NCBI GenBank assembly: GCA_944327275.1
Contig: CALVHB010000023.1
Span: 1 to 64,000, forward strand
Direction of reading: 5' to 3'
DNA length: 64,000 nucleotides
DNA from: Candidatus Gastranaerophilales bacterium
GTDB taxonomy: Bacteria; Cyanobacteriota; Vampirovibrionia; Gastranaerophilales; Gastranaerophilaceae
This document shows positions 3,885 to 45,719 of the stretch, piece by piece. Position 1 is the stretch's first letter; every line of letters starts with the position of its first letter. Made by a program: the position numbers and the translations under genes. The notes beneath the pieces were generated by a model. It saw only the letters and a list, made by a program, of their open reading frames with translations, made no database searches and had not been told where the DNA came from.

Positions 3885-6452
3885 TTATTTTCCCTTTTGT
3901 TGTGGAGATTTCATCTTTCCTAGGAAGAACTGAACAAATACTGTTAATCCTAAAAGAGCTGCTCCTGCTCCACCAAATATCTTAAGCCATTTGTTTGTAT
4001 TATATACTTGTTTTCCTGTCTTATGCAGTAATTCCAGAGGAGAAATACCTGTCAGTAGGAACTTCACATCTGATCCTGTCTGATTTTTTGCTCTTATAAG
4101 ATGACGAGGTTTTGCAAAGTAATCTTCACCACCAAGTTTTTCAAGAACAGTGTTTCTATAGTTTAGAACTTCTTGTTTGATATTAGTTTCGTTTAATATC
4201 GCCATTGTATCAGGGTGCATATCCCCTTCATACATCAATCTCATTGCGTCTTGGTAGAAATATTTATCTCCAGGAATATCTGTTCTTTCAATATTTTTAT
4301 TTAGATAATGATATACAACTTTTCCATTTTTTACTTCAACAGGTGCTTTGGTAGTGTTAGGATGTGCATTTCTTAACATGTAGAATTTAGTTGCATAATC
4401 AGAAGAGTGACCTTCTAAAGTGATAGTTTTACAAAGTTCAATTAATTCTTCTTTTACTTCGGTGTATTTACCTTGAAGTGCAGGTTGGTTATTAACATCT
4501 GTTGATATACGTCTGAACATATCCAGAGTGTTTATGATCCTATAGAAAGAACTTTTTACTCCAAGAAGTCTGTCTTTTACATAAATTTTTTGTAGATTTT
4601 TCAATGTTCCAATAACATCATTTCCGTCAACGCCAACAAGTCCTTTGGCAGTTCTTTCAAATCCTAAATCACCGTTTCGAAGTTCTTTTGCAACACTATC
4701 AAACAATCCATCAACGATGTCATCATAAGCAGTATTATTATAATCTCCGGTCATTAGCGGTGTTGAAATATCACTTGTTTTAAGTTTATCGTTAATTTCT
4801 GCAATCTTTTTCGCCATCGTTGTCATAAGTTTGTTGAAAGATTCTTTATTAGCAACGATATTGTCGACTTTCTTTCTTAAAAGAGGTGAAATAAGAGTTG
4901 TATCACTGTGTACTTTCTCAAGTTCTGAAGATGTAAATCCTAAAGATTTCAAGAGTGTTTTAGCAACATCATTCCAATAGTTTGCTATAACAGTTTCAGG
5001 AGCTGCTCCAACTTTTTTCAATGCATATTCGTCCAGAGCTTGATTTTTAGCATTAAAATCATCAAATATTTTTGCAAGTTTTTGTAACTTTGTAATTGCT
5101 TTGCTATCAAAAATATTAGATTTTGCTTTGGATAGAATAACTTTTATTGAGCTGGAATTTTTATCTGCTTTATTTTTTACTATAAGTTTTCTAACAAGTT
5201 CAATATCTTGTTGTTTATCAGGGTTGTTTTTGTTATATTCTACAGCATTTTTTTCTACTAGTTTTTTTATGGCAATTGTTATATCTCTAAATTTGGATGC
5301 GTCTATATCTTTGTTTAGTTGTTCATTGCTATTTAAAAGCTCTATAATTTGATTTTCATTTGGTATAATTGCCTGAATGAATTCTTCATCAAATGCTCTA
5401 ACCTTTTTAAACATTTTCAAAAGGTTTTCATGAATTTCTTTTATATTTTCAACTTTAACATTGTATGTATTTTGTCCATATATTTTTTCTCTTAAGTCTG
5501 CTCTAAAGTTTCGAGCGGTTAGTGGATCCATGTATTTTGTGAAAATTTCTGAAATAGATTCTTCAAGTTCTTTTGTAACAGGTTGATCTTTGTGTTTTGT
5601 TATAACTTCGTTCAAGTTGTTTGTAATAAAGTTAGTTTGATATTTTTTTGCGTATGAGTCAATATTACTCAATATCTTATCAGCTTCTTTATTTTGCCTG
5701 TTATCAAGAAACTTATTTAAATAAGGTTCAGAAAGATTGCAAATAATTCCACTCATGATAGGGGCTGCAAAACCTGCTGTAAGCATCCAAAGTGTATTAT
5801 TCTGAGTGGCAATTTTCTTCATTTTCTCTTGTATGAATTCTCTTCTGTTAGGAATATTCTTGTCTACACCCAGTCTATCACCAATTTTTTGGATTTCTTC
5901 ATCTGAGTATAAATCCCAAGGTAGGAATTGTGGGTCCTGATAGAATGGTTTTTTCCTTCCAAAACTGTCCTCATATTGTTTATGAACATTTACTCCATGA
6001 ATTAAATATGCAGGTAATTGAATTGCTATTTTAGGCCATATAGCCATTGAAGCAAGGAATGATGCCAACCCTACAAATTCCATCCCTTTAGTCATTGGAG
6101 TTTGTCTTTTTGTAAACAAATATCCGGCAATACCTAGTCCACCTAACATAAGACCTAAATCATTTAATTTGCCAAGTTCATGATCGTTAGCATTCCCTTG
6201 TATTGCATGTTTTAGAGCTTTTGCATTGTATATGCCGTTTTTGACAAGTGCTGCAGGACTGTTAAAAATGCTACCTTTTATTAGCTGCCCTTTTCCGTCA
6301 AGAGGTTTAATAAAAGTTCTATTGTTAAGTTCTTTTTGTATATCAAAATCAGGCTTAGGTTTTTTAGGTGCTTCTTGTTTTTTTTGTTGATTTAACCTAT
6401 TAGCACTTGTAGATTGATATGTTATGAAATTTTGAATTAGGTTTGAATTCAT
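3885..6452 (-). CDS. Large lineage-specific membrane protein (paralogue of the gene at 6455-7483)
   Basis: I do not recognise a named family for this 855-residue protein. It has two probable membrane segments at about 99-115 and 124-145, another at about 222-240, a long charged helical region (250-800) and a C-terminal membrane segment (about 830-850) with a basic tail. Residues 160-250 (FLPWDLY, then LG...N, then SEPYLNKFL) align with the same positions of the upstream neighbour, so the two share a domain. It lies 2 bases from each operon neighbour. It may form a complex with that neighbour; function unknown. Confidence 0.8.
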   Translation of the reverse strand: MNSNLIQNFITYQSTSANRLNQQKKQEAPKKPKPDFDIQKELNNRTFIKPLDGKGQLIKGSIFNSPAALVKNGIYNAKALKHAIQGNANDHELGKLNDLGLMLGGLGIAGYLFTKRQTPMTKGMEFVGLASFLASMAIWPKIAIQLPAYLIHGVNVHKQYEDSFGRKKPFYQDPQFLPWDLYSDEEIQKIGDRLGVDKNIPNRREFIQEKMKKIATQNNTLWMLTAGFAAPIMSGIICNLSEPYLNKFLDNRQNKEADKILSNIDSYAKKYQTNFITNNLNEVITKHKDQPVTKELEESISEIFTKYMDPLTARNFRADLREKIYGQNTYNVKVENIKEIHENLLKMFKKVRAFDEEFIQAIIPNENQIIELLNSNEQLNKDIDASKFRDITIAIKKLVEKNAVEYNKNNPDKQQDIELVRKLIVKNKADKNSSSIKVILSKAKSNIFDSKAITKLQKLAKIFDDFNAKNQALDEYALKKVGAAPETVIANYWNDVAKTLLKSLGFTSSELEKVHSDTTLISPLLRKKVDNIVANKESFNKLMTTMAKKIAEINDKLKTSDISTPLMTGDYNNTAYDDIVDGLFDSVAKELRNGDLGFERTAKGLVGVDGNDVIGTLKNLQKIYVKDRLLGVKSSFYRIINTLDMFRRISTDVNNQPALQGKYTEVKEELIELCKTITLEGHSSDYATKFYMLRNAHPNTTKAPVEVKNGKVVYHYLNKNIERTDIPGDKYFYQDAMRLMYEGDMHPDTMAILNETNIKQEVLNYRNTVLEKLGGEDYFAKPRHLIRAKNQTGSDVKFLLTGISPLELLHKTGKQVYNTNKWLKIFGGAGAALLGLTVFVQFFLGKMKSPQQKGK

Positions 6453-6454
6453 TT

Positions 6455-7483
6455 TTAACTTACCACGTAATTGTCATCTTTGTTTATAACTTTTGAAGCG
6501 TCAGTTTTTTGAGGCTTTTTACCACTTGCAACAGTATTAGCTACTCCGACCACAGAAGATAATAATGATGCTCCTAACAGAATTTTGCCGGCATGTTTAC
6601 TTACACCGCTACCTTCTCCATTGTAGAAATTTTTAGCACTTTTTACAAAACTTTCTTTTAAAATACTCATTGATTCTTTAAATTCTTTTTCTTTCCAGAA
6701 TTTAAAAGTCATATTATTAAGATATTTTTCCCAAGGTGTCTGGAATGCAAAAGCTACACCTGAAGCTGCCCATAAGTATGAAGATATTGTTTTGGCCAAG
6801 TTTGATTTAACTACTATTTCTTTTATTCTAGGTTTGACTTCTTGGTCAGAATCATTTAGGTTTTCTCCCATTCCTAATTTTTTTGCAATTTTGTCATAAC
6901 GGAAGTTTCTTTTCTGTCCTTTTGATTCATCTCCGTAAAGCAAATCCCAACGAGGGAATTCTACACTTTCAAATACTTTATGATATTCAATACTTGTGAT
7001 ATCCGTATCATTTATATGATCTGGCAGTTCATAAATTACTTTAGCGTATGGCTGTTCGGTATCTACTCCTGTTAGAGCTTTTACCGGTTTGGTTATTAGA
7101 GATTTTGAAAGACTTTTTGCCAGTCCGTAGAAGACAACCCCAAGGGCCATCTTTTTCCCGATTTTAGAAGCTTGAGTTCTGTCAAAATGGTCGTAAAATT
7201 TGTTGGCAAAATTAAATACAGCCATTAATGTAGCACTTCCTACAAGATATGGGACTGTTCCCATTGTTAAAAATTCATAAAAATTTGCGTTTTTACTTCC
7301 TTTCAATCCCTTTGCAGGATAGACAGTAAAAGCGTTTGTTAACTTATCCAGTCCTATGCGTGTATTGGTTATAAAATTGTTAGGCAAAAGAGTATCATGA
7401 TTGTATCTTAGACTCTTTTTATCTTCGTTGTTGTTCGCCCTAAAACCTATTACATTTTTATGATTGTTAATCGGTAAAATCAT
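6455..7483 (-). CDS. Lineage-specific membrane protein with N-terminal VIGFRA signature
   Basis: This 342-residue protein heads the leftward operon. The start chosen (MILPINNHK) has ggag 5 bases upstream; a GTG five codons earlier is less likely. It has probable membrane segments at about 73-93, 110-128, 232-250 and 302-320. Residues 165-256 (FPRWDLL, LG...N, PWEKYLN) match the next gene. The polar N-terminus with VIGFRAN at 11-17 resembles the xxFxG pattern of other proteins in the window. No known domain recognised. Confidence 0.78.
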   Translation of the reverse strand: MILPINNHKNVIGFRANNNEDKKSLRYNHDTLLPNNFITNTRIGLDKLTNAFTVYPAKGLKGSKNANFYEFLTMGTVPYLVGSATLMAVFNFANKFYDHFDRTQASKIGKKMALGVVFYGLAKSLSKSLITKPVKALTGVDTEQPYAKVIYELPDHINDTDITSIEYHKVFESVEFPRWDLLYGDESKGQKRNFRYDKIAKKLGMGENLNDSDQEVKPRIKEIVVKSNLAKTISSYLWAASGVAFAFQTPWEKYLNNMTFKFWKEKEFKESMSILKESFVKSAKNFYNGEGSGVSKHAGKILLGASLLSSVVGVANTVASGKKPQKTDASKVINKDDNYVVS

Positions 7484-7580
7484 TATCACTCCACGCACAT
7501 GAATATGGTGTTTAAAGACCTGTAAATATTATTTTTTGTCAGTATTTCTTTATTAATTTAACATTTTTTTACAATGTAAA

Positions 7581-8426
7581 TTATGCATAAATTCTGAAAA
7601 ATATTGCAGTCGCAATTCCTGCGATAATGCAGTAATAGCCAAATATCGCAAGTGAAAATTTAGATATAAATTTCATAAAATATTTAATGCATAAATACCC
7701 TACAACTCCTGATACAAGTGTTCCTGCAAGTATTGCCGTCCAGTTGTATTGAATTGCTTCATGTATGTCTATTTTTACTAAAGGATATACCATTGATGCT
7801 CCAAGTATTATTGGAATACTAAGTAAAAACGAATATCTTGCTGCAGTAACTCTATCTAAACCGCAAAATAGTCCTGTTGCAATTGTCCATCCGGATCTAG
7901 AAAAACCGGGCAGTGCGGCTAGCCCTTGTGCAATACCTATAAATATGGAAGTTTTTAAATCCATATTATCTTTCTTTTCTTCAATTTTTTTAGATTTATA
8001 CTCACTGTATAGTAGTGCAAAACCTGTTATAAACAGTAAAATCCCAACTATTGAAGGAGAATATACAAGTTTTTCTGCAACTTCATTTATTGGTAAAGCT
8101 AACGCAACTGTAACGACTGTACCAATCATTATGAAAAGCCCCAGTTTAGCTTCTTTATCTGACCAATTTTTTGTTTTTAAAGCTTGATACATTGCTTTTA
8201 AGATATTCATTACATCTTTTCTGAAGAATATTAATACTGCAATTAATGTCCCCAAATGAACCATGATGTCAAAAAAGACTTCTTCATTTGAGCTTTGTAC
8301 AATTTCTATACCTTTAAAAACTTTGTAAAAATTTGATGTAAAAACAAGGTGAGCTGAACTTGAAATAGGTAGAAATTCACTCAAACCTTGAACTATCCCC
8401 ATTAATATTGCCTGTATTAAATTCAT
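7581..8426 (-). CDS. uppP: Undecaprenyl-diphosphatase (UppP/BacA)
   Basis: This integral membrane enzyme dephosphorylates undecaprenyl diphosphate to recycle the lipid carrier for peptidoglycan and LPS; overproduction gives bacitracin resistance in other species. Both family signatures are present: QGLSEFLPISSSAHL (13-27, catalytic Glu17 and conserved His26) and PGFSRSGWT (173-181, Arg177). It is 281 residues with about eight hydrophobic segments, a normal size. It is last in the kdsD-kdsC-queD-uppP run, 23 bases after queD. Confidence 0.96.
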   Translation of the reverse strand: MNLIQAILMGIVQGLSEFLPISSSAHLVFTSNFYKVFKGIEIVQSSNEEVFFDIMVHLGTLIAVLIFFRKDVMNILKAMYQALKTKNWSDKEAKLGLFIMIGTVVTVALALPINEVAEKLVYSPSIVGILLFITGFALLYSEYKSKKIEEKKDNMDLKTSIFIGIAQGLAALPGFSRSGWTIATGLFCGLDRVTAARYSFLLSIPIILGASMVYPLVKIDIHEAIQYNWTAILAGTLVSGVVGYLCIKYFMKFISKFSLAIFGYYCIIAGIATAIFFRIYA

Positions 8427-10634: not shown

Positions 10635-10677
10635 AAATTTGGCTAGCAAAAAAAATTTTTAGGTGTCTTATATAAAC

Positions 10678-11673
10678 ATGCTAAGTTTGAGTAGTGTTAA
10701 TAGACAAATAATTTCGACGTCGGTTCAAAATTCAAAAAAAACAGCAGAGGATAATAAGAAAGTTGAATCTGATGTATTGAATGATAAACCAAAGTCAGAT
10801 AAGAAAAATGCGCTGGCTATGACTGGAGCAGTTGCTCTAGCTGGGATTGCTATTGCAGGTATAATAATTTCAAGAAACAGAAATGCAAAAAATGTTGTAG
10901 ATAAGACAGAAGAAGTTTTATCTGATATCGATGATGTTGTAATTGAAGCTGTTCCTAGCGAGGTCACATCTTTTAGTGAGGAGATTTTTAATAAAGCAAA
11001 AAATGCCGAAAAGAAAGTAAGAGAGCAAATTTCTAAAAAGTTTCTTGAATTCAGAGATAATGGTATTGATTCTTTAGGTTTTGCTCAAAGGATAAAAACT
11101 GTAACTGATGGGAAGCAAAGTGTAAAATCTGTGGATAAGATTTTATTAGATAAAGAAGAATTCGATGCAGCTTTTAATTTTATTGATGATTCATTGCTTA
11201 ACGCTAAGTTAAAAGCCGGAGTTGATTTGTCTGAAGATGTTATTGTTAAAAAGATGGATAATTTGATAGAAAATTCAACACCTTTAGAAAATGAAAGTTA
11301 TGTTTATTCTGGAATTAGGACTCAAAAGATTTGGGATGATTTTTTGCCTGAAGAAATTATTAGTGAAATAAAAGAAGGAAATACAATTAAGGATAAAGGT
11401 TTTGTACTAACTTCAAGGGTATATGATGATATTCTTGCGAAAGTTGACCCAATGAATTATAAAGACCATGAGTCTTGTGGATATTTGTTAAGAATATTGT
11501 TGCCAAAGGGTACAAAAGGTTTTGACGGTAGAAGATTTACCGGAAGAAATTCTGATAGAGGATACAATGCGAGGTTTATACTTGCAAGAAATTCTGAATT
11601 AAAGATTAACAGTATTGACGATAATACAAGAATTATTGATTGTGAGTATATTTTGCCTTCAAATTCAAATTGA
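10678..11673 (+). CDS. Membrane-anchored protein with degenerate ADP-ribosyltransferase-like domain
   Basis: The start ATG 10678 is preferred because aggtg lies 12 bases upstream; a GTG at 10663 is the alternative. The 331-residue protein has a polar N-terminus, one membrane segment (about 45-65), a helical region (95-200) and a C-terminal domain (about 205-326) with the order of the ADP-ribosyltransferase exoenzyme fold: VYSGIR (209-214), IKDKGFVLTSR (237-247), LLPKGTKGFD (274-283) and ARFILARNSELKI (298-310). The usual Y-R-G reads Y-S-G, STS reads LTS, and no ExE is visible before FIL. It may be inactive or very divergent. The fold call is pattern inference. Confidence 0.6.
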   Translation: MLSLSSVNRQIISTSVQNSKKTAEDNKKVESDVLNDKPKSDKKNALAMTGAVALAGIAIAGIIISRNRNAKNVVDKTEEVLSDIDDVVIEAVPSEVTSFSEEIFNKAKNAEKKVREQISKKFLEFRDNGIDSLGFAQRIKTVTDGKQSVKSVDKILLDKEEFDAAFNFIDDSLLNAKLKAGVDLSEDVIVKKMDNLIENSTPLENESYVYSGIRTQKIWDDFLPEEIISEIKEGNTIKDKGFVLTSRVYDDILAKVDPMNYKDHESCGYLLRILLPKGTKGFDGRRFTGRNSDRGYNARFILARNSELKINSIDDNTRIIDCEYILPSNSN

Positions 11674-32413: not shown

Positions 32414-33568
32414 TTAATCCCATTGTTTTGAGTTTAAGTTTTCTCTCAATAAGTTGTTCGCTGCTAAATAATCAAGGATTCTGAAATTTAATAGATTTCT
32501 AAAATCTCTCATAGCTGTAGTGTAATTGGTTGTATTTCTTGGAGCTTTTTCTCTAAGTTCTGTAAGAGTTTTTTCTGAAAGCATTCCAGTACGATATCTG
32601 TTTGGAGAGTATAAAGTCCAAGTTTCTGGAGGATAATATGAGGATCTGCATTCATTAGTATTTTCATTAATTAACATTTGTTGGAATACTTCTATTGGCA
32701 TATCATGATATTCTTGAGGGATTTCCTTTTTATATGGCATTAGCCTTTCTGGAAGTTGTACTTCAGGCTCGGAAATTTCTTCATCATCATAATACATACT
32801 TTCTAAATATTCCATGCAACCTATACCATATATTCTTATAGATTTTGCAAAATCTTCCAGAATACCTTCTTCTTCTGCAAATTCTGACATGATATCTAAG
32901 AAAGAGCAAGCACCTTTTCCTGAGCTTATATAGTCTGTTATTACTACTTTTTTACCGGTTTTTTCATGAACGTGTACTATATGTGCAGGATCTGCTTGAA
33001 TTCTTTTTAAATATCTCTTGTATGCTTTTTTCTCTTCTGGAGTAGGTTCCATGGCTTTTATTTTTACTAATCCATCTGGAGTTTTTCTGTACCAATATTT
33101 AGAAAAAGCAACTCCCTTATAGTCATCAAGTCCATCTTTCATCCATAATGCAGTATTTAAAAACCATTTTGGACTTCTGCCAAGACATAATATTGGTTCA
33201 TTTTTTAGGCCTCTATACAAATCACATACATCAATAAATTGTTTCATTATTCTATCATCTTTAAGAGGCATATACCTTTTATTCGCATTGTTTAAATCTT
33301 CGGGTTTAACTTCTGTTTCAAAGTTTGCATACCTTTTTCTTAATATTTGTTTCATATTGTCTGATAGTTTATTATACTTAAAATAGTCTATATCTTCGAC
33401 TCTTCTAGGTTTATGTTTTTCCCCAAAAAATACAACATATGGCAATCCTGTTAAGGATGTTATTTGATTGTTTGCGGTACTATTTTTTGAGTTTGTTTTT
33501 AATTCTGTTGTTTGATAGTTGTTATTTTTGACAGAATTTAGACCTACACAGATAGAATTGATTCTCAT
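32414..33568 (-). CDS. Hypothetical protein with phosphoribosyltransferase-like motif
   Basis: This 384-residue protein starts at MRINSICVG (aggag 6 bases upstream); an upstream Met at 33592 is less likely. A polar N-terminus with VVFFGEKHKPRR (about 48-60) precedes the main domain. EPILCLGRSPKWFLNTAL and KKVVITDYISSGKGACSF resemble the first strand and PRPP-binding loop (hydrophobic strand, acidic residue, then TGxG-like SSGKG) of a PRTase fold. The second acidic residue of the PRPP motif is replaced by Tyr. C-terminal third is helical, function unknown. The fold suggestion is inference from two motifs. Confidence 0.6.
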   Translation of the reverse strand: MRINSICVGLNSVKNNNYQTTELKTNSKNSTANNQITSLTGLPYVVFFGEKHKPRRVEDIDYFKYNKLSDNMKQILRKRYANFETEVKPEDLNNANKRYMPLKDDRIMKQFIDVCDLYRGLKNEPILCLGRSPKWFLNTALWMKDGLDDYKGVAFSKYWYRKTPDGLVKIKAMEPTPEEKKAYKRYLKRIQADPAHIVHVHEKTGKKVVITDYISSGKGACSFLDIMSEFAEEEGILEDFAKSIRIYGIGCMEYLESMYYDDEEISEPEVQLPERLMPYKKEIPQEYHDMPIEVFQQMLINENTNECRSSYYPPETWTLYSPNRYRTGMLSEKTLTELREKAPRNTTNYTTAMRDFRNLLNFRILDYLAANNLLRENLNSKQWD

Positions 33569-33684
33569 AAAATTTCTCCTATTTTTTTGCATTAAAAATA
33601 AGACAAAATTTTTTTTGCTATTTAACTGTAAAATATGTTTAGAAAATTTAAAAATTAAATTTGTATTAATCCGCTAATTTAATA

Positions 33685-36396
33685 TTATTTATGTCCACCA
33701 TCGTCAGAATATTCGTCAAATATAAAATCTGTACTTGAAGAGTTTATTCTGTCAGGGTATCCCATTATTTTTAATCTTGGATAAATTTCCTTTCCTCGCT
33801 TAAAGAATTTTATACCTGCGCTCCCTTTAGGAGGTACAATGTGTTCTGCAGCTTCTTCAAATAAGGCAAGGACTTCAGCGCCTTTTGGGAATTTATATTT
33901 TTCGTATATTTTCTGTTTTGCTCTTGCACAAATTTTGGCAGGTTTTGTTTTTCCCTTTTCATCGCTTGCAAGAACTTCTGTATCAGATGTTATGTAGTAA
34001 TTTTCAACAAAAGTTTTTATTATATTTTTTGATTGAGGATCTTTAGGATCAAAAAACTCAAGGAAATAAGATAAACGAATATTTTCTAGTTTTTTATCTT
34101 TAACCAAATTAGTTAATTTAATTATGTATGTAATAGCCTTTTCTTCTGGAATATTTTCTTCCTGAATGATATTTATCATATCTTGAATATTTGCATTTGC
34201 TTCAGATTCTCCAAGATATATTTTTGAAGCTTTTATGTATTCTCCACCTTTTTCATAATCAATATTACCTATAGAATCTGTGGCATAATTCTCAGCTTTT
34301 TTAACAAATGGATTTTTGCTCCAAACAGCATCTTGGAAAGTTAATATTTTTTCTATTGATGTATTATCTTCAATATTGTTATTTACAATATCAATTATTG
34401 TCTTTGCTTTTTTATAATTAGAGTCTGAGTATGAGGTTGGTATATATTGAAGCATAATTTCAGAAATATTATTATTTGTTTGATTGTACAGGTTTATAAA
34501 ATCAAACATTGTATTGGTTATGTTATCCTGAGATTCTTTCATTTTTAATATGGTTTCAATTTCATTTCTTTTTATTGCATTATCTGCAGAGATGTTTCCG
34601 TTTTTAATATTTGTCAGTATTTTTATAAAGTCTATAATTGCATCTTTATTATTTTTATTGATTTCAACTTCGTATACATAATCTACTAATTCTACCAGAG
34701 GTTCGGAATTTGAAATTTCAGCACTTTGAATTAGTAAGTTTGTAAGATTATCTTTTATTATATCGGCATTATTATTTGAGTTTGTGTGCTTATTAGTAGA
34801 TGTTTCCCAGTTGATAGAGTTTTGTCTAAGAAGTTTCAAGCAGGTTGATATAGAAATTTGATATTTGTCGCAGATATCTTTGAGACTTTTTCCTGATAAT
34901 ACAAACTCTAGCAAATCTTCTTTAGGAATATTACGTGATATTTCGAGTTTTTTTTGATGTTCGGTAATAATTCCACGTCTTTTAAGAAGAGTTTCATATT
35001 GTTTTTTCGTTAGTCCCAGTTCTGTATAAACCTCTTTATGAGAGTTATTTGATTTAATCATGTTTTCGATTTGTTCTGTTGGAATTTTAGAGGTAACTTC
35101 TTTAATTTCTGATTTTGGAGTTTTAATTTTATATCCATTTAGCATTTTATAGTACATATATTGTGAAATATTGTATTGGCTACAAATTTCCTCAAGAGTT
35201 TTTTCGGAACTAATTTCCTGTTCAAGAGTTTCTTTAGACATAGGGAATTCAATACTTCTGCTTTTTCTTTTCCAAGGTGCTTCCAATTCAAATTTTTGTT
35301 CTAATTTATAAAAAGCTCCTTTACTTATTCCAAGCATTTCAATTGCTTCTTTTAAGTTTGTTGTAGAATTGATAACTTCGACAAATTGTTCTCTGGTTAT
35401 ACTGTTCATTTTTTCTCTGGAGATTTTTTGTGGACTCACAATTTTTCCCTCATCAAGTAATGCTTGAAATTGAGCTGAAGATAATTTGTATTTTTCTCTG
35501 ATTTCTGCAATGCTCATTCCTGAGTCGATATCTTTTTGAATTTCATCTTTATTGATATTAAATCTTCTTTCTCTTGCTTCAATAGCAGGGGTGGTGATGT
35601 TGTTAACACGCATTGCGTATTGTAATGTTTGTGTACTGATATTATATTCATCACAGATTTCTTTTATTGATTTTCCGGAGAGACTCAATTCTTTAAGATC
35701 TTCTGCTGATAAACTCGCCCATTCTTCATGAATATTTATTGGATCTTCTGTTATATTAAATTTATCTTTTAATCTATTGTATGTTTTAATATTGGAAGAA
35801 AGTCCTAATTTTTTTAGTACTTCATATCTACTTTTAGAACTTTTTATAGCTGAGTAGAATTCTTCCTGTGTTATATCTTTCACAGCTTCGTTGGCAATCA
35901 TTTTTTTTGATTTAATTTGATTTTTCTTAATTAATTTAAGGTATTGTTGAGATGAAATGTTGTATTTCCTTAGAATTTTATCTTTAGGAATTCCGTTTTT
36001 TACATCTTCAATAAAGTTTTCAATATTAACGTTTTTACTGTTTTGTTTTATTTTTTTTCTAGGAGTAGCAATATTAAATTCTTTAACTATTTTACAGTAG
36101 AGGCTGGAACTTATTCCCAGTTCTTTCCAAATATCTTTTGCCTCAACATTTTGTTCAAGTTTTTTATTTATTTCTTCAGCTAATTTTTTGTGATCAAAAG
36201 TTTTCTGTTTTTTAGAAATTGCAATTGACGCAAGCGCATTGGCAGTAGAAGAGTCACTTGAAATTTTTAAAGATTCTTCAACAGATTTATTGTCGTCGGA
36301 TTCTCCTTTGAAAGTTATGTCTTTTTTTATAGTAGGACTTCCGATATTTTTAGAATTTATATAAGAGTAAAAATTGTATTTTTTTAACTTGTCCAA
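33685..36396 (-). CDS. Large protein with nine tandem helix-turn-helix-like repeats
   Basis: I do not recognise a named family for this 903-residue protein. The N-terminus (1-60) is polar with DITFKGE at 26-32. Residues about 67-530 are nine tandem copies of a 50-54-residue unit with consensus I-x-x-E-x-L-x-x-x-I-x-S-G-K-S-L-K-E-I-C-x-K-Y-N-I-S-x-x-x-Y-x-x-L-L-K-x-x-x-I-x-T-P, which reads as helix, helix-turn-helix and basic linker, like a region 4 or transposase-type HTH. A Ser/Asn-rich linker (531-545) leads to a helical domain and a C-terminal segment (SDTEVLA to GYPDRINSS, about 795-890). No membrane segment. DNA binding by the array is an inference. Confidence 0.75.
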   Translation of the reverse strand: MDKLKKYNFYSYINSKNIGSPTIKKDITFKGESDDNKSVEESLKISSDSSTANALASIAISKKQKTFDHKKLAEEINKKLEQNVEAKDIWKELGISSSLYCKIVKEFNIATPRKKIKQNSKNVNIENFIEDVKNGIPKDKILRKYNISSQQYLKLIKKNQIKSKKMIANEAVKDITQEEFYSAIKSSKSRYEVLKKLGLSSNIKTYNRLKDKFNITEDPINIHEEWASLSAEDLKELSLSGKSIKEICDEYNISTQTLQYAMRVNNITTPAIEARERRFNINKDEIQKDIDSGMSIAEIREKYKLSSAQFQALLDEGKIVSPQKISREKMNSITREQFVEVINSTTNLKEAIEMLGISKGAFYKLEQKFELEAPWKRKSRSIEFPMSKETLEQEISSEKTLEEICSQYNISQYMYYKMLNGYKIKTPKSEIKEVTSKIPTEQIENMIKSNNSHKEVYTELGLTKKQYETLLKRRGIITEHQKKLEISRNIPKEDLLEFVLSGKSLKDICDKYQISISTCLKLLRQNSINWETSTNKHTNSNNNADIIKDNLTNLLIQSAEISNSEPLVELVDYVYEVEINKNNKDAIIDFIKILTNIKNGNISADNAIKRNEIETILKMKESQDNITNTMFDFINLYNQTNNNISEIMLQYIPTSYSDSNYKKAKTIIDIVNNNIEDNTSIEKILTFQDAVWSKNPFVKKAENYATDSIGNIDYEKGGEYIKASKIYLGESEANANIQDMINIIQEENIPEEKAITYIIKLTNLVKDKKLENIRLSYFLEFFDPKDPQSKNIIKTFVENYYITSDTEVLASDEKGKTKPAKICARAKQKIYEKYKFPKGAEVLALFEEAAEHIVPPKGSAGIKFFKRGKEIYPRLKIMGYPDRINSSSTDFIFDEYSDDGGHK
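34807..36198 (-). repeat. Coding region of nine HTH-like protein repeats
   Basis: Units start near residues 67, 124, 175, 229, 281, 333, 385, 438 and 490 of the 903-residue protein. Copies 4, 7 and 9 are closest (GKSIKEICDEYNIS, KTLEEICSQYNIS, GKSLKDICDKYQIS); copies 1, 6 and 8 are a second type with a (E/M)LG(I/L) core (KELGIS, EMLGIS, TELGLT). The repeats differ too much to be a recent expansion. Confidence 0.75.
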
Positions 36397-36512
36397 TTAC
36401 TTTAACCTTTATTACCTACAATGTAATAAAGTAATATGAATATAAAAAATTGCTAAAAAATCTGTTTAATTATAATAAAATCAAGTTTTTATTTTGTTTT
36501 AAATTTTAATAT

Positions 36513-38306
36513 CTATTGTGTATTTTTTGTTTCGTACAAATAGAACTTTACCAATTTGTATTTTTCTAAAACTATTAATTTACAGCGTTTTTTAAATTCC
36601 ATAATAGATTTTTTAAATTTCTGTTTAAGGATGTTTGGTAGTTGTAAATCAGAATATATTGCCTTGAAATCGATGTTGTTAACATCTTTTGAGTGTCGTA
36701 CTTTATTCATATAGAATTTATCTTGTTGGGAATGCAGTTCTGTTACTAGGTCTAGTAAATCAAAGCAAACTTCACTTTTGAGATTTATAGAATATTTTCC
36801 AAAAATATCTTTATATGTGTCTACAAAATCCAAAATTCCTTGTTCTATTGATGGATATATTTCAAGTCTGAATAAATCATCTTTTGAGGGTTTTTTATAT
36901 ATCGGTACAGTATCCTTTATTGAATCTAAAGGTAATTCAGGTGCAGTGAACAATAGTTCTAATATATTTATTTTGGGGATATCTTCATTTACAAAATTTC
37001 TATTAACAAATGTTTTGTATTTAAATTCGGTATTTTCCAAAAATGTTCCGCTGAATATTCCTAATATAACCTTATTCCCGAAAACATTTGAGAGAAACGC
37101 TTGTGAAGAAAATGATCCGGTTGTCATATCTATTGTTGCGATTCTGTTATTTTTAATTTCGAGTTGTTCTACATATTTTTGGTATTCAATATAGTGTTCT
37201 TTTGCTCGGTTTTGTATAATTTTAATATTTTTATTAAATAGATTTTTTGCTTCCTCAAATGTGTCAGGAGGATTTTTAAAATCAGTGCAAATATCTTTAT
37301 TCATTTCAAAAATATTTTTTAAGTATACAAAACTATTTCTGTAGTCAAGAAAACATTTTATATTTAATATTCTAGGAGCATAGATATAATGATTTTCGAG
37401 AGCATTTTTACCTGATAGAATATTATAAACTTTTTGTAAAATATATCCGTCTCTTGATACAAATAATAAATTGTTTATATCATTAAGTTTGCATTGTTCT
37501 ATAATATATTGAATATATCCTATCGCAAATGCTCCACCAATATTGTAGGCCAAATTATACCAATAATCATTTGATTTAGTGGATAATTTAATTGCCGACA
37601 TTGCTGTAATTATGCTAAAATCGAGAGAATATTTTTTCTCCGATAATTGAGCATATTTTTTGCCATTTTTTGTTTTGAAAAATTTGTTAATATATTTTTC
37701 AAAAAAAATTGCCTTAAATCCGCTATCTATTGCGTTAAAATAGTCACTTTGTAAGTTATCACCAATATGGATAATTTTTTGAGGTTGAGTTTTTAGCTCT
37801 TCAACAATTTCTTTGTACAAGCTTTTGGTATATTTAGTTTTTTTATATTCACTGGATACATATACCTTTGCTATATCTGTAAATCCATTTTTATATAAAA
37901 CATCCTTTAAAAATTCTTCAGGTAGATACATATCAGATGTAGCAATGATTTTTTTACCCAGAGTCTTGGCTTTATCATAAAGATGTTTTATAAAAGGATT
38001 TGGTCTTAGTATTTGTTTTTCAAGCTCTAATTCAAAAATTTTTAATTCTTTATATTCTGGACATATATTTTCATAAATATCATCAATAGTTATATCTTCG
38101 TATTGTGAAAAAGTATATCGGGCACGTTTTTCTGCTAATATGCGTTCTTTTTTAAACCCTTTGGCTTTACATAACTCTTCAATATGTTCAAAAAGATCTT
38201 CTGCTTTTATATATGGTCTGATTAAAAGTGTGTCAAATATATCAAAACTAACAAAATCAACATTCTCAACCAGATTATTAAATTTTTCAATTTCTTTTTT
38301 GTACAT
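36513..38306 (-). CDS. HAD-superfamily hydrolase with long C-terminal region
   Basis: This 597-residue protein begins with a complete HAD domain: SFDIFDTLL (nucleophile Asp22), a helical cap, IIATSDMYLP as motif II and IIHIGDNLQSD as motif IV, ending near residue 205. A second part contains NLLFVSRDGYILQKVY and IATIDMTTG, resembling another Rossmann-like or HAD-derived domain with a conserved SRDG. Proteins of this build often sit in polysaccharide gene clusters; here no glycosyltransferase is adjacent. The C-terminus is basic. Substrate unknown. Low GC and no good Shine-Dalgarno. Confidence 0.75.
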   Translation of the reverse strand: MYKKEIEKFNNLVENVDFVSFDIFDTLLIRPYIKAEDLFEHIEELCKAKGFKKERILAEKRARYTFSQYEDITIDDIYENICPEYKELKIFELELEKQILRPNPFIKHLYDKAKTLGKKIIATSDMYLPEEFLKDVLYKNGFTDIAKVYVSSEYKKTKYTKSLYKEIVEELKTQPQKIIHIGDNLQSDYFNAIDSGFKAIFFEKYINKFFKTKNGKKYAQLSEKKYSLDFSIITAMSAIKLSTKSNDYWYNLAYNIGGAFAIGYIQYIIEQCKLNDINNLLFVSRDGYILQKVYNILSGKNALENHYIYAPRILNIKCFLDYRNSFVYLKNIFEMNKDICTDFKNPPDTFEEAKNLFNKNIKIIQNRAKEHYIEYQKYVEQLEIKNNRIATIDMTTGSFSSQAFLSNVFGNKVILGIFSGTFLENTEFKYKTFVNRNFVNEDIPKINILELLFTAPELPLDSIKDTVPIYKKPSKDDLFRLEIYPSIEQGILDFVDTYKDIFGKYSINLKSEVCFDLLDLVTELHSQQDKFYMNKVRHSKDVNNIDFKAIYSDLQLPNILKQKFKKSIMEFKKRCKLIVLEKYKLVKFYLYETKNTQ

Positions 38307-44543: not shown

Positions 44544-45183
44544 ATGCTTTTGTATCAATTTTTTGAGCTTGATTATTTGCTTTCTTGTTTTTATCTTCGA
44601 GTCCCAAAAATCTCAGCGCAGGGTGTATAAATGCGTGACTGACTTGTGGTGCAAGAATTGCAAGACCAAGAACTGATCCAATTATGTTACTTAATTCTAC
44701 AGCACCTTTTACATATGCAAATTTTTCAGGATTTTTCTTTTTAAGTTCTTCTATCAAAGTGGCATCATACAAGTCTTTTACTTTAGAATTACTGCCTGGC
44801 AGATTTTTATTAAGAGTTGCTAATCTGTTATCAATTGACGGATTATCTGCAAGTTTTCTGTAATGCAAATATTCTTTAACATCTTTAAAATGTTCAAAAC
44901 CTTGAGTATTTTTGAAAAGTTTTTCTTTTGCCAGTTTGAATCCGCCTTTTTTAAATACAGGAACTATCAATGCCATGTATACAGCAAGACAAGTAGCCTG
45001 ATATAAAAATTCTTTTGCCGCTGCATATTGTTTAGTATCAGAGTCAATATCTTTGTCAACAAGTATAAAACCTGGTCTACCAATAGATTTAAGTGTAGTT
45101 TCTATTGCTACTGATTGAGTGGTGTTCTGTGCAATAGTTGCAAGTTGTGAACTTGTAATAAAACTTTTAATTGGTTCTATCAT
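44542..45183 (-). CDS. Lineage-specific membrane protein, paralogue of the next upstream gene
   Basis: This 213-residue protein has two or three hydrophobic segments (about 68-88, 162-183). Its KSIGRPGFILVDKDIDSDTKQY segment (about 32-53) aligns with KGICRPMFTMMDKTENPETKKY of the protein at 45180-45719, and both share the order of an RE/KE-rich helix, a membrane segment and a (G)LxxxDKK C-terminus. The start overlaps the previous stop by 4 bases (ATGA), indicating translational coupling. Function unknown. Confidence 0.7.
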   Translation of the reverse strand: MIEPIKSFITSSQLATIAQNTTQSVAIETTLKSIGRPGFILVDKDIDSDTKQYAAAKEFLYQATCLAVYMALIVPVFKKGGFKLAKEKLFKNTQGFEHFKDVKEYLHYRKLADNPSIDNRLATLNKNLPGSNSKVKDLYDATLIEELKKKNPEKFAYVKGAVELSNIIGSVLGLAILAPQVSHAFIHPALRFLGLEDKNKKANNQAQKIDTKA

Positions 45184-45719
45184 AATCCACCTACCCTTAA
45201 ACCAACTTGAGGTTTAGCTGTAAAAGTACTTAATTTTGGATATTTATTCATATTAGCTATTGAATTTAAATTTGCCGGAGTGTAAACAGGAGGTTGTTCT
45301 GTTTCCATAACTTTTTTAGGTTCTTTTTTATCAGGAGCTTTAAGTCCCATTTTATCCATTATCGGTTTAATTGCGACAGAACAAAGCCCAGGAATTACGA
45401 ATAGTGCAGCAGCACATACTCCCATAAACATAAGGTTCTTTTCTGCGCGGCTTGCAAGAGCTTTATCTTTAAATGCTTTTTTTGCAAGTCCTCCGGCTAA
45501 TTCTCCACATGCCCAATATGCAGGAATAGCTATTACTTCTGTTAACCCTTCTCTCAGGGCTGTGTATTTTTTAGTCTCAGGGTTTTCTGTTTTGTCCATC
45601 ATAGTGAACATAGGACGGCAAATCCCCTTTACTGTTGCAATTGCCATTACAACGTAGGTTGGTTTGTTATTTTCACCCAAAGATTTACATATTTTTTTTA
45701 CAAAATTATTTATTGACAT
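45180..45719 (-). CDS. Lineage-specific membrane protein
   Basis: This 179-residue protein has hydrophobic segments at about 62-80 and 98-118 and a lysine/proline-rich C-terminus ending in FTAKPQVGLRVGGL. The VKGICRPMFTMMDKTENPETKKYTALREG block is shared in pattern with the neighbour at 44542 and, more loosely, with the protein at 40268. First gene of a two-gene operon, coupled by an ATGA overlap. No named family recognised. Confidence 0.7.
   Translation of the reverse strand: MSINNFVKKICKSLGENNKPTYVVMAIATVKGICRPMFTMMDKTENPETKKYTALREGLTEVIAIPAYWACGELAGGLAKKAFKDKALASRAEKNLMFMGVCAAALFVIPGLCSVAIKPIMDKMGLKAPDKKEPKKVMETEQPPVYTPANLNSIANMNKYPKLSTFTAKPQVGLRVGGL

What the first reader, a model, noticed from the sequence alone, without database searches (positions are those of the whole stretch)
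33685..36396. Nine tandem helix-turn-helix-like repeats in one protein
Seen: the 903-residue protein contains nine 50-54-residue units, each with a helix, an SGKSLKEICxKYNIS-type helix-turn-helix and a basic, often Thr-Pro-containing linker. Known: most DNA-binding HTH proteins carry one or two; long tandem arrays are rare (TALE, MTERF and PPR-like arrays are other folds). Inference: an array of this kind could read an extended DNA or RNA sequence, one unit per site, with unit differences setting specificity. Two subtypes, (E/D)ICxxY(N/Q)IS and (E/M)LG(I/L), appear. The N-terminal DITFKGE signature suggests the protein may be targeted elsewhere than the cytoplasm.
Basis: partly seen in the sequence, partly recalled or inferred. 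Interest (0 to 1): 0.8.

Follow-up and report, generated by a model that had tools for sequence, protein, structure and literature searches.

The report
Nine-unit helix-turn-helix array protein
A gut bacterium related to cyanobacteria (Gastranaerophilales) makes a protein with nine DNA-binding-type units in a row, each apparently kept different on purpose; it belongs to an undescribed, patchily distributed family whose members nearly all share an N-terminal tag and in many cases a matching promoter, so it may be a new natural way to read a long stretch of DNA.

Summary
The ORF encodes nine diverged 41-47-residue helix-turn-helix (HTH) units (spacing 47-57) at residues 73-530. A unit model trained without this protein still finds all nine; 500 shuffles give none above 10 bits. 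Pfam HTH_28/HTH_23 match, and AlphaFold2 predicts four helices per unit. It belongs to a patchy family confined, in our searches, almost wholly to Ca. Gastranaerophilaceae: mostly stand-alone 5-11-unit arrays, with no relatives in phages, plasmids or viral contigs. Here and in two relatives the array is fused to a ~365-residue C-terminal module that also occurs behind a non-HTH front half; its fold and function are unknown. In two of three ortholog sets, exposed recognition-helix residues differ between units but are kept unit by unit, as expected for an ordered DNA reader. The N-terminal 'FxG' tag occurs in 32/33 array proteins. A ~30-nt upstream element precedes many array genes and other tagged orphan genes, an apparently undescribed regulon, though this gene has only a partial copy. 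Where the protein acts is unknown. Closest functional parallels: archaeal Cbp1 (three HTHs along a CRISPR repeat) and multi-HTH TnsD; it is a member of neither.

The parts
33685..36396 (-). whole gene, 903 aa, TTG start
   Evidence: homologs in other genera
36301..36321 (-). N-terminal FxG-type tag DITFKGE (residues 26-32)
   Evidence: equivalent motif in 32 of 33 array proteins and all 13 'class B' proteins looked at
36058..36180 (-). HTH unit 1 (residues 73-113)
35902..36039 (-). HTH unit 2 (120-165)
35743..35883 (-). HTH unit 3 (172-218)
35584..35721 (-). HTH unit 4 (226-271)
35428..35559 (-). HTH unit 5 (280-323)
35272..35409 (-). HTH unit 6 (330-375)
35113..35238 (-). HTH unit 7 (387-428)
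34957..35094 (-). HTH unit 8 (435-480)
34807..34938 (-). HTH unit 9 (487-530)
33688..34776 (-). C-terminal module (~residues 541-903), helical then a small alpha/beta domain; shared with proteins that have no HTH array
   Evidence: AlphaFold2 pLDDT 88, pTM 0.75; no known fold or family found
33691..33987 (-). C-terminal alpha/beta subdomain (residues 804-902) with invariant K827, E847, K863, K876, R883 and nearly invariant D882, D894, H902
   Evidence: alignment A5 of 18 proteins
36397..36460 (-). upstream region with a partial copy (TAGCAATTTTTTATA, about 60 nt before the start) of the element found before other array genes; full-model score is background (0.4)

Best explanation
It is a modular, probably sequence-specific, double-stranded-DNA-binding protein. 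Nine compact HTH units, joined by short basic linkers (predicted to form a fourth helix), lie along DNA and each inserts its third helix into the major groove at its own short sub-site. The array as a whole would recognise one extended site: if each unit covers about as much as an HTH of Cbp1 (roughly 8 bp), a fully engaged array would span some 60-80 bp. The C-terminal module is a separate functional part that the array brings to that site; the same module is brought elsewhere by a different front half in sister proteins. The N-terminal tag marks the protein as part of a larger set of lineage-specific tagged proteins. Shown: the units, their HTH nature by profile and predicted fold, the family, the module swapping, the unit-by-unit conservation and the tag. 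Inferred: DNA binding, groove reading, one extended site. Unknown: target, location in or outside the cell, activity of the C-terminal module.
For: Pfam HTH_28/23/7 above gathering cut-offs. Four predicted helices per unit; single units superpose on DNA-binding HTHs (ParB/Spo0J, IdeR, ToxT, FasR; Z 4-5, 2.2-2.7 A over 41-47 residues) and on the CRISPR-repeat binder 2lvs. The profile of the array matches 2lvs by sequence at E=1e-4, and relatives match the Cbp1 family at E 8e-22 to 4e-23. Helix 3 is net basic (+1.5 per unit) and helices 1 and 2 slightly acidic; linkers average +1.2. Exposed helix-3 residues: identity 0.57 between orthologous units versus 0.15 between units of one protein, compared with 0.42/0.27 for helices 1-2 (C1 set, p=0.0025); same trend for this protein and its ortholog L063 (0.46/0.13 versus 0.35/0.24, p=0.022). 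L063, in another genus, keeps all nine units in the same order (diagonal 104.9 versus 37.9) and lacks the C-terminal module.
Against: No binding experiment. The C2 ortholog set shows no significant helix-3 excess (p=0.23), and positions within a helix are not independent, so the p-values are nominal. Net charge of the array is only +15 over 466 residues. Foldseek gives no match at E<=0.001; pTM 0.28 leaves the inter-unit geometry open. Z of 4-5 is within the range of chance for helical bundles.
Confidence: 0.58

Rival explanations
1. Protein-binding or scaffold array: the HTH-like trihelical units have been recruited as an alpha-helical repeat scaffold and no longer read DNA.
For: A repeat protein built from the same SGKT-xx-EI-xx-LG-S type helix-turn-helix (PDB 8vd6, 'CAP repeat', which looks designed) is the best sequence match in the PDB (E=2.8e-15), so such units can stack as a repeat protein. 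Modest net charge.
Against: Recognition-helix residues are the most unit-specific and ortholog-conserved exposed positions in two of three sets; helix 3 and linkers are basic.
Confidence: 0.17
2. General DNA coating or bridging without much specificity, in the manner of a nucleoid protein.
For: PHROGs match of relatives to a 'D5-like transcriptional regulator' family and other phage DNA-binding proteins; many weak sites could give strong non-specific binding.
Against: Per-unit recognition helices are conserved between genera while differing between units, which a non-specific coater does not need; the gene is patchy (only 1 of 33 genomes of the genus has a long array), unlike a nucleoid protein.
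Confidence: 0.1
3. Exported effector: the tag is an export signal and the array reads DNA of a host or neighbouring microbe, a functional analogue of TALE proteins.
For: FxG tag in 32/33 array proteins; tag and upstream element co-occur on otherwise unrelated orphan proteins; genes are patchy, solitary and here lie in a variable locus.
Against: No export route identified; the tagged set also includes a hexapeptide-repeat protein and a membrane protein; no Sec-type signal; the tag could be any sorting or docking signal.
Confidence: 0.1
4. RNA-binding array (e.g. of an mRNA or structured RNA).
For: HTH/winged-helix arrays can bind RNA (SelB appears among the weak fold matches).
Against: Sequence affinity is to DNA-binding HTHs (HTH_28/23/7, Cbp1, TnsD, transposases).
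Confidence: 0.05

Closest known systems
Cbp1 (NCBIfam NF040595), CRISPR-repeat-binding protein of Sulfolobales
   Same: Tandem HTH domains from duplication, short linkers; the three HTHs align along one CRISPR repeat in order (PMC10883916). Array relatives match the model at E 8e-22 to 4e-23 and the NMR structure 2lvs.
   Different: Three domains in ~135 residues versus nine (5-11 in relatives); archaeal; no tag, no C-terminal module; this protein scores 28 bits against a cut-off of 140.
TnsD/TniQ target selectors of Tn7-like transposons
   Same: C-terminal region folds into multiple HTH domains and selects a specific target (PMC10293859); weak Pfam TnsD matches in relatives.
   Different: No TniQ core or zinc finger, no transposon genes around; no TnsD match in this protein.
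TALE, STAR, MOON, pTERF and other DNA-binding tandem-repeat proteins (PMC11417379)
   Same: Ordered tandem repeats with variable positions in a constant frame.
   Different: Other repeat folds and lengths; the main text of that paper contains no mention of HTH.
PDB 8vd6 'CAP repeat'
   Same: Tandem units with a closely similar helix-turn-helix sequence.
   Different: Five near-identical 33-residue units, apparently designed, no known DNA role.
HTH-bearing serine recombinases/transposases (HTH_7, HTH_23, HTH_28)
   Same: Same unit-level HTH fold.
   Different: One or two units, with a catalytic domain.

Membership tests
Pfam HTH_28 / HTH_23 domain class | score above the curated gathering cut-off | tested here: met
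   55.1 (25) and 37.9 (24.6) bits
Cbp1 (NF040595) | score above equivalog cut-off of 140 bits | tested here: not met
   28 bits; relatives 77.6-81.9
Cbp1 (NF040595) | several HTH domains in tandem with short linkers | tested here: met
   nine units
Cbp1 (NF040595) | binds CRISPR repeats | not tested
   no binding data; CRISPR loci not examined
TnsD (PF15978) | profile match above cut-off 32.4 | tested here: not met
   no match in this protein; 30.7 and 25.5 bits in relatives
TALE-like repeats | 33-35-residue two-helix repeats; TAL profile match | tested here: not met
   units 41-47 residues, spacing 47-57, four helices; no TAL profile among Pfam matches up to E=1
mTERF / PPR / pTERF solenoids | profile match | tested here: not met
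   not among Pfam matches up to E=1
MADS mad1 (NF047737 / PDLC04133) | score above NCBIfam cut-off of 80 and MADS gene neighbours | tested here: not met
   not listed for this protein in NCBIfam up to E=0.1; 33.8 bits in PADLOC, to a short stretch of the array only; no defence genes seen beside it
Known fold for the C-terminal module | significant structural match | tested here: inconclusive
   no Foldseek hit at E<=0.001 in PDB or BFVD; VIA-align only helical bundles, Z<=7.6
Sequence-specific DNA-binding protein | binds a defined DNA sequence | not testable with these tools
   needs experiment

The most novel reading that the evidence does not exclude
A natural, modular, programmable DNA reader built from HTH units (not TALE, zinc finger or PPR), carried as exported or specially sorted effectors by a lineage of gut bacteria and expressed through a dedicated promoter, with interchangeable C-terminal modules.
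Probability: 0.1. Interest if true: 0.92.

Novelty: new variant of a known kind. Interest (0 to 1): 0.66.

Why it matters
Most characterised HTH proteins use one or two units, and the best-studied tandem case (Cbp1) has three; here up to 11 ordered, individually conserved units form arrays in a widespread but largely uncultured gut lineage. If each unit reads its own sub-site, the family offers many natural arrays from which an HTH recognition code could be learned, and a further kind of programmable DNA binder. The shared tag and upstream element also point to an undescribed regulon of tagged orphan proteins in Gastranaerophilales whose sorting or export is testable.

Tried and rejected
Direct relatives in genome contigs by single-protein patterns: none; an alignment of closer members worked. 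Phages, plasmids and IMG/VR viral contigs: no relatives, so a phage or plasmid origin has no support. Conserved gene neighbourhood or operon partner: none across groups. The adjacent 392-aa gene has relatives in 30 of 191 genomes and overlaps genomes with array or C-module relatives 11 times (about 6 expected), so it was not taken as a partner. CdiA-type tRNase for the C-terminal domain: two weak hints (PF18664 at E=0.12 in one member; 5i4q at rank 22) did not recur when the subdomain was scanned alone, so not claimed. P0001/L063 upstream conservation as an autoregulatory site: similarity is not exceptional (rank 3 among 393 other upstream regions). Unit-by-unit relation of this array to the C1/C2 arrays: no common register. 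In the structure second looks, families that do not appear are not excluded.

Full report
WHAT IS THERE. The ORF at 33685-36396 (minus strand) encodes 903 residues from a TTG codon that directly follows an in-frame stop. The GC content of the gene is 0.281, against 0.312 for the window. Pfam finds HTH_28, HTH_23 and HTH_7 above their cut-offs. A unit model gives nine units at residues 73-530 with spacings 47, 52, 54, 54, 50, 57, 48, 52. To avoid circularity a model was rebuilt from eight other proteins only: it still finds all nine units at 14.7-38.9 bits, while 500 shuffles of the protein never exceed 6.6 bits. The units are old: mean identity between them is 27% and blastp of the protein against itself sees no repeat.

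FOLD. An AlphaFold2 model of residues 50-537 with 13 aligned sequences has mean pLDDT 79 and four helices per unit, a trihelical HTH plus a linker helix; pTM is 0.28, so the arrangement of units is not determined. Foldseek finds nothing at E<=0.001 for the whole array. The second look superposes single units on HTH domains (8vd6, Spo0J/ParB, IdeR, ToxT, FasR) and two units on 2lvs, the CRISPR-repeat-binding protein, at Z 4-5; such Z values alone would be weak. By sequence the array profile matches 8vd6 (an HTH-like repeat, E=2.8e-15) and 2lvs (E=1e-4) in the PDB.

FAMILY. In the window's genus only this genome of 33 has a long array. Among 191 genomes of the family, 40 have a relative of some part; among 286 of the order, 32 have an array match at E<=1e-10, all in the window's own family. 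In class- and phylum-wide samples all matches but one weak one lie in the same family. Record titles of matching contigs (Ca. Melainabacteria; Ca. Gastranaerophilus phascolarctosicola Zag_221) place the family in Ca. Gastranaerophilales; some records carry other labels (Fusobacterium sp., Muribaculaceae), which look like mislabelled MAGs. Relatives were not found in phages, plasmids or IMG/VR. Three architectures occur: (A) array plus C-terminal module (this protein; L026, 987 aa, ten units; L025, 11 units, contig end); (B) the C-terminal module behind a non-HTH front half, about 770-860 aa; (C) stand-alone arrays of 5-9 units, plus more distant 2-6-unit proteins. L063, in another genus, has the same nine units as this protein in the same order but no C-terminal module. 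Module swapping is thus real: array with and without module, module with and without array.

UNIT-BY-UNIT CONSERVATION. If the units read different sub-sites, exposed recognition-helix residues should differ between units and be kept at the same unit in orthologs. In the C1 set (five proteins, nine units) exposed helix-3 positions are 57% identical between orthologous units and 15% between units of one protein, versus 42% and 27% for exposed positions of helices 1-2 (Mann-Whitney on the difference, p=0.0025). For this protein and L063 the values are 46/13 versus 35/24 (p=0.022); for a seven-unit set p=0.035 (it shares one protein with C1); for the C2 set there is no significant excess (p=0.23). 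The exposed positions were chosen from the consensus, not from a solved structure, and positions are not independent, so the p-values are nominal. Over 194 units, helix 3 is net basic (+1.5), helices 1 and 2 slightly acidic, linkers +1.2. This supports, but does not prove, DNA reading.

C-TERMINAL MODULE. A model of 369 residues with 19 aligned sequences has pLDDT 88 and pTM 0.75: a helical part, then an alpha/beta domain. No Pfam, NCBIfam, PDB-sequence, Foldseek-PDB or BFVD match is significant; the second look gives only helical bundles. The last ~100 residues hold invariant K827, E847, K863, K876, R883 and nearly invariant D882, D894, H902, the pattern of a functional, possibly catalytic, site. 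This is inference.

TAG AND UPSTREAM ELEMENT. The DITFKGE motif is one case of a polar leader ending in hydrophobic-x-F-x-(G/A/S), present in 32 of 33 array proteins (control ORFs 116/330 with the same loose pattern; p=8e-13) and in all 13 class B proteins examined. With a stricter pattern it is rare elsewhere. Comparing upstream regions of array genes exposed a conserved element, TAGCAAAAATTTTTTTTAGAGGTTTTTAAT, often about 35 nt before the start codon. A model trained on nine C1/C2 array genes only was tested on all other ORFs: 22 of 44 tagged versus 57 of 823 untagged ORFs score 8 or more (odds ratio 13, p=3e-13; the 44 include other array genes), and several high-scoring 'untagged' ones carry recognisable tag variants. 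Searching the window's own genome with a DNA pattern alone gave 11 sites (1 for the reversed pattern); seven or eight are followed within 28-68 nt by ORFs that begin with such a tag, for example SFTS, SFQG, NFKA, SFGS, AFKG (judged by eye). Tag and element therefore seem to define a common set of genes. This gene has only a partial copy of the element (TAGCAATTTTTTATA) and scores at background; L026 and L063 also score at background. Most non-HTH tagged proteins tested have no Pfam family. What the tag does is unknown; the literature held here gave nothing on it.

LOCUS. The interval between the flavoprotein gene (31258) and the bifunctional-nuclease gene (38664) has quite different contents in sister genomes: serine recombinases, a transposase-like gene, repressors, and in G028 and G011 further tagged orphan genes. 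So the gene lies in a variable locus. Neighbours of arrays in other genomes are unrelated genes, many of them housekeeping, and arrays look monocistronic.

WHAT IT WORKS LIKE. Cbp1 has three HTHs arranged in order along a CRISPR repeat (PMC10883916); TnsD-like proteins use multiple HTHs for target choice (PMC10293859). The present family works most plausibly in the same way with three times the units, but fails the Cbp1 and TnsD profile cut-offs. A systematic survey of DNA-binding tandem-repeat proteins does not mention HTH arrays in its main text (PMC11417379). The figure of about 8 bp per unit, hence 60-80 bp, is my inference from the ~24-bp length of Sulfolobales repeats (own knowledge).

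VERDICT. Real, lineage-specific, undescribed in the sources searched; a modular DNA reader is the best reading (0.58), with target, site of action and C-terminal activity unknown.

Noticed in passing
upstream of L027:5836, L028:5941, L029 array (6359-7786), L061:5337-5804, L038:1510-3120, window 32414-33592, window 10663-11673 and window 45180-45719; 11 sites in the own genome (L141-L151): A ~30-nt upstream element (TAGCAAA...GG.TTTTAAT, ~35 nt before the start, some transcripts possibly leaderless) shared by array genes and other orphan genes with an N-terminal FxG-type tag: an apparent undescribed regulon.
   Followed up: partly
L138:1133-6892 and L137:1-2234: Runs of consecutive orphan genes whose products carry the FxG-type leader, near the bifunctional-nuclease gene in sister genomes; a variable locus that holds serine recombinases in others.
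   Followed up: partly
window 32414-33592: 392-aa protein next to the array gene on the same strand, with a strong copy of the upstream element and a possible tag (VVFFGEK); a VVITDYISSGKGA stretch recalls the PRPP loop of phosphoribosyltransferases, but with only weak profile support. Found in 30 of 191 family genomes.
   Followed up: partly
L034:6270-7715 and L088:2152-3627: In two genomes the stand-alone array gene sits at a similar place inside a fatty-acid synthesis (fab) cluster, on the opposite strand.
   Followed up: no
window 36513-38306: Protein with a HAD-type N-terminal part and an unknown C-terminal part (597 aa), unusually AT-rich (GC 0.259), in the same variable interval.
   Followed up: no
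L079, L082 record titles: Contigs labelled Fusobacterium sp. and Muribaculaceae carry Gastranaerophilales-type arrays; likely mislabelled or mixed MAGs.
   Followed up: no
L032:992-2086, L035:6621-7640: Array ORFs in G040 and G148 appear broken near their N-terminus (matches with stop codons inside), perhaps decaying copies.
   Followed up: no
L069, L070, L071, L073 and similar loci: Shorter tagged proteins with 2-6 degenerate HTH units occur in other genomes of the family, suggesting a continuum from short to long arrays.
   Followed up: partly
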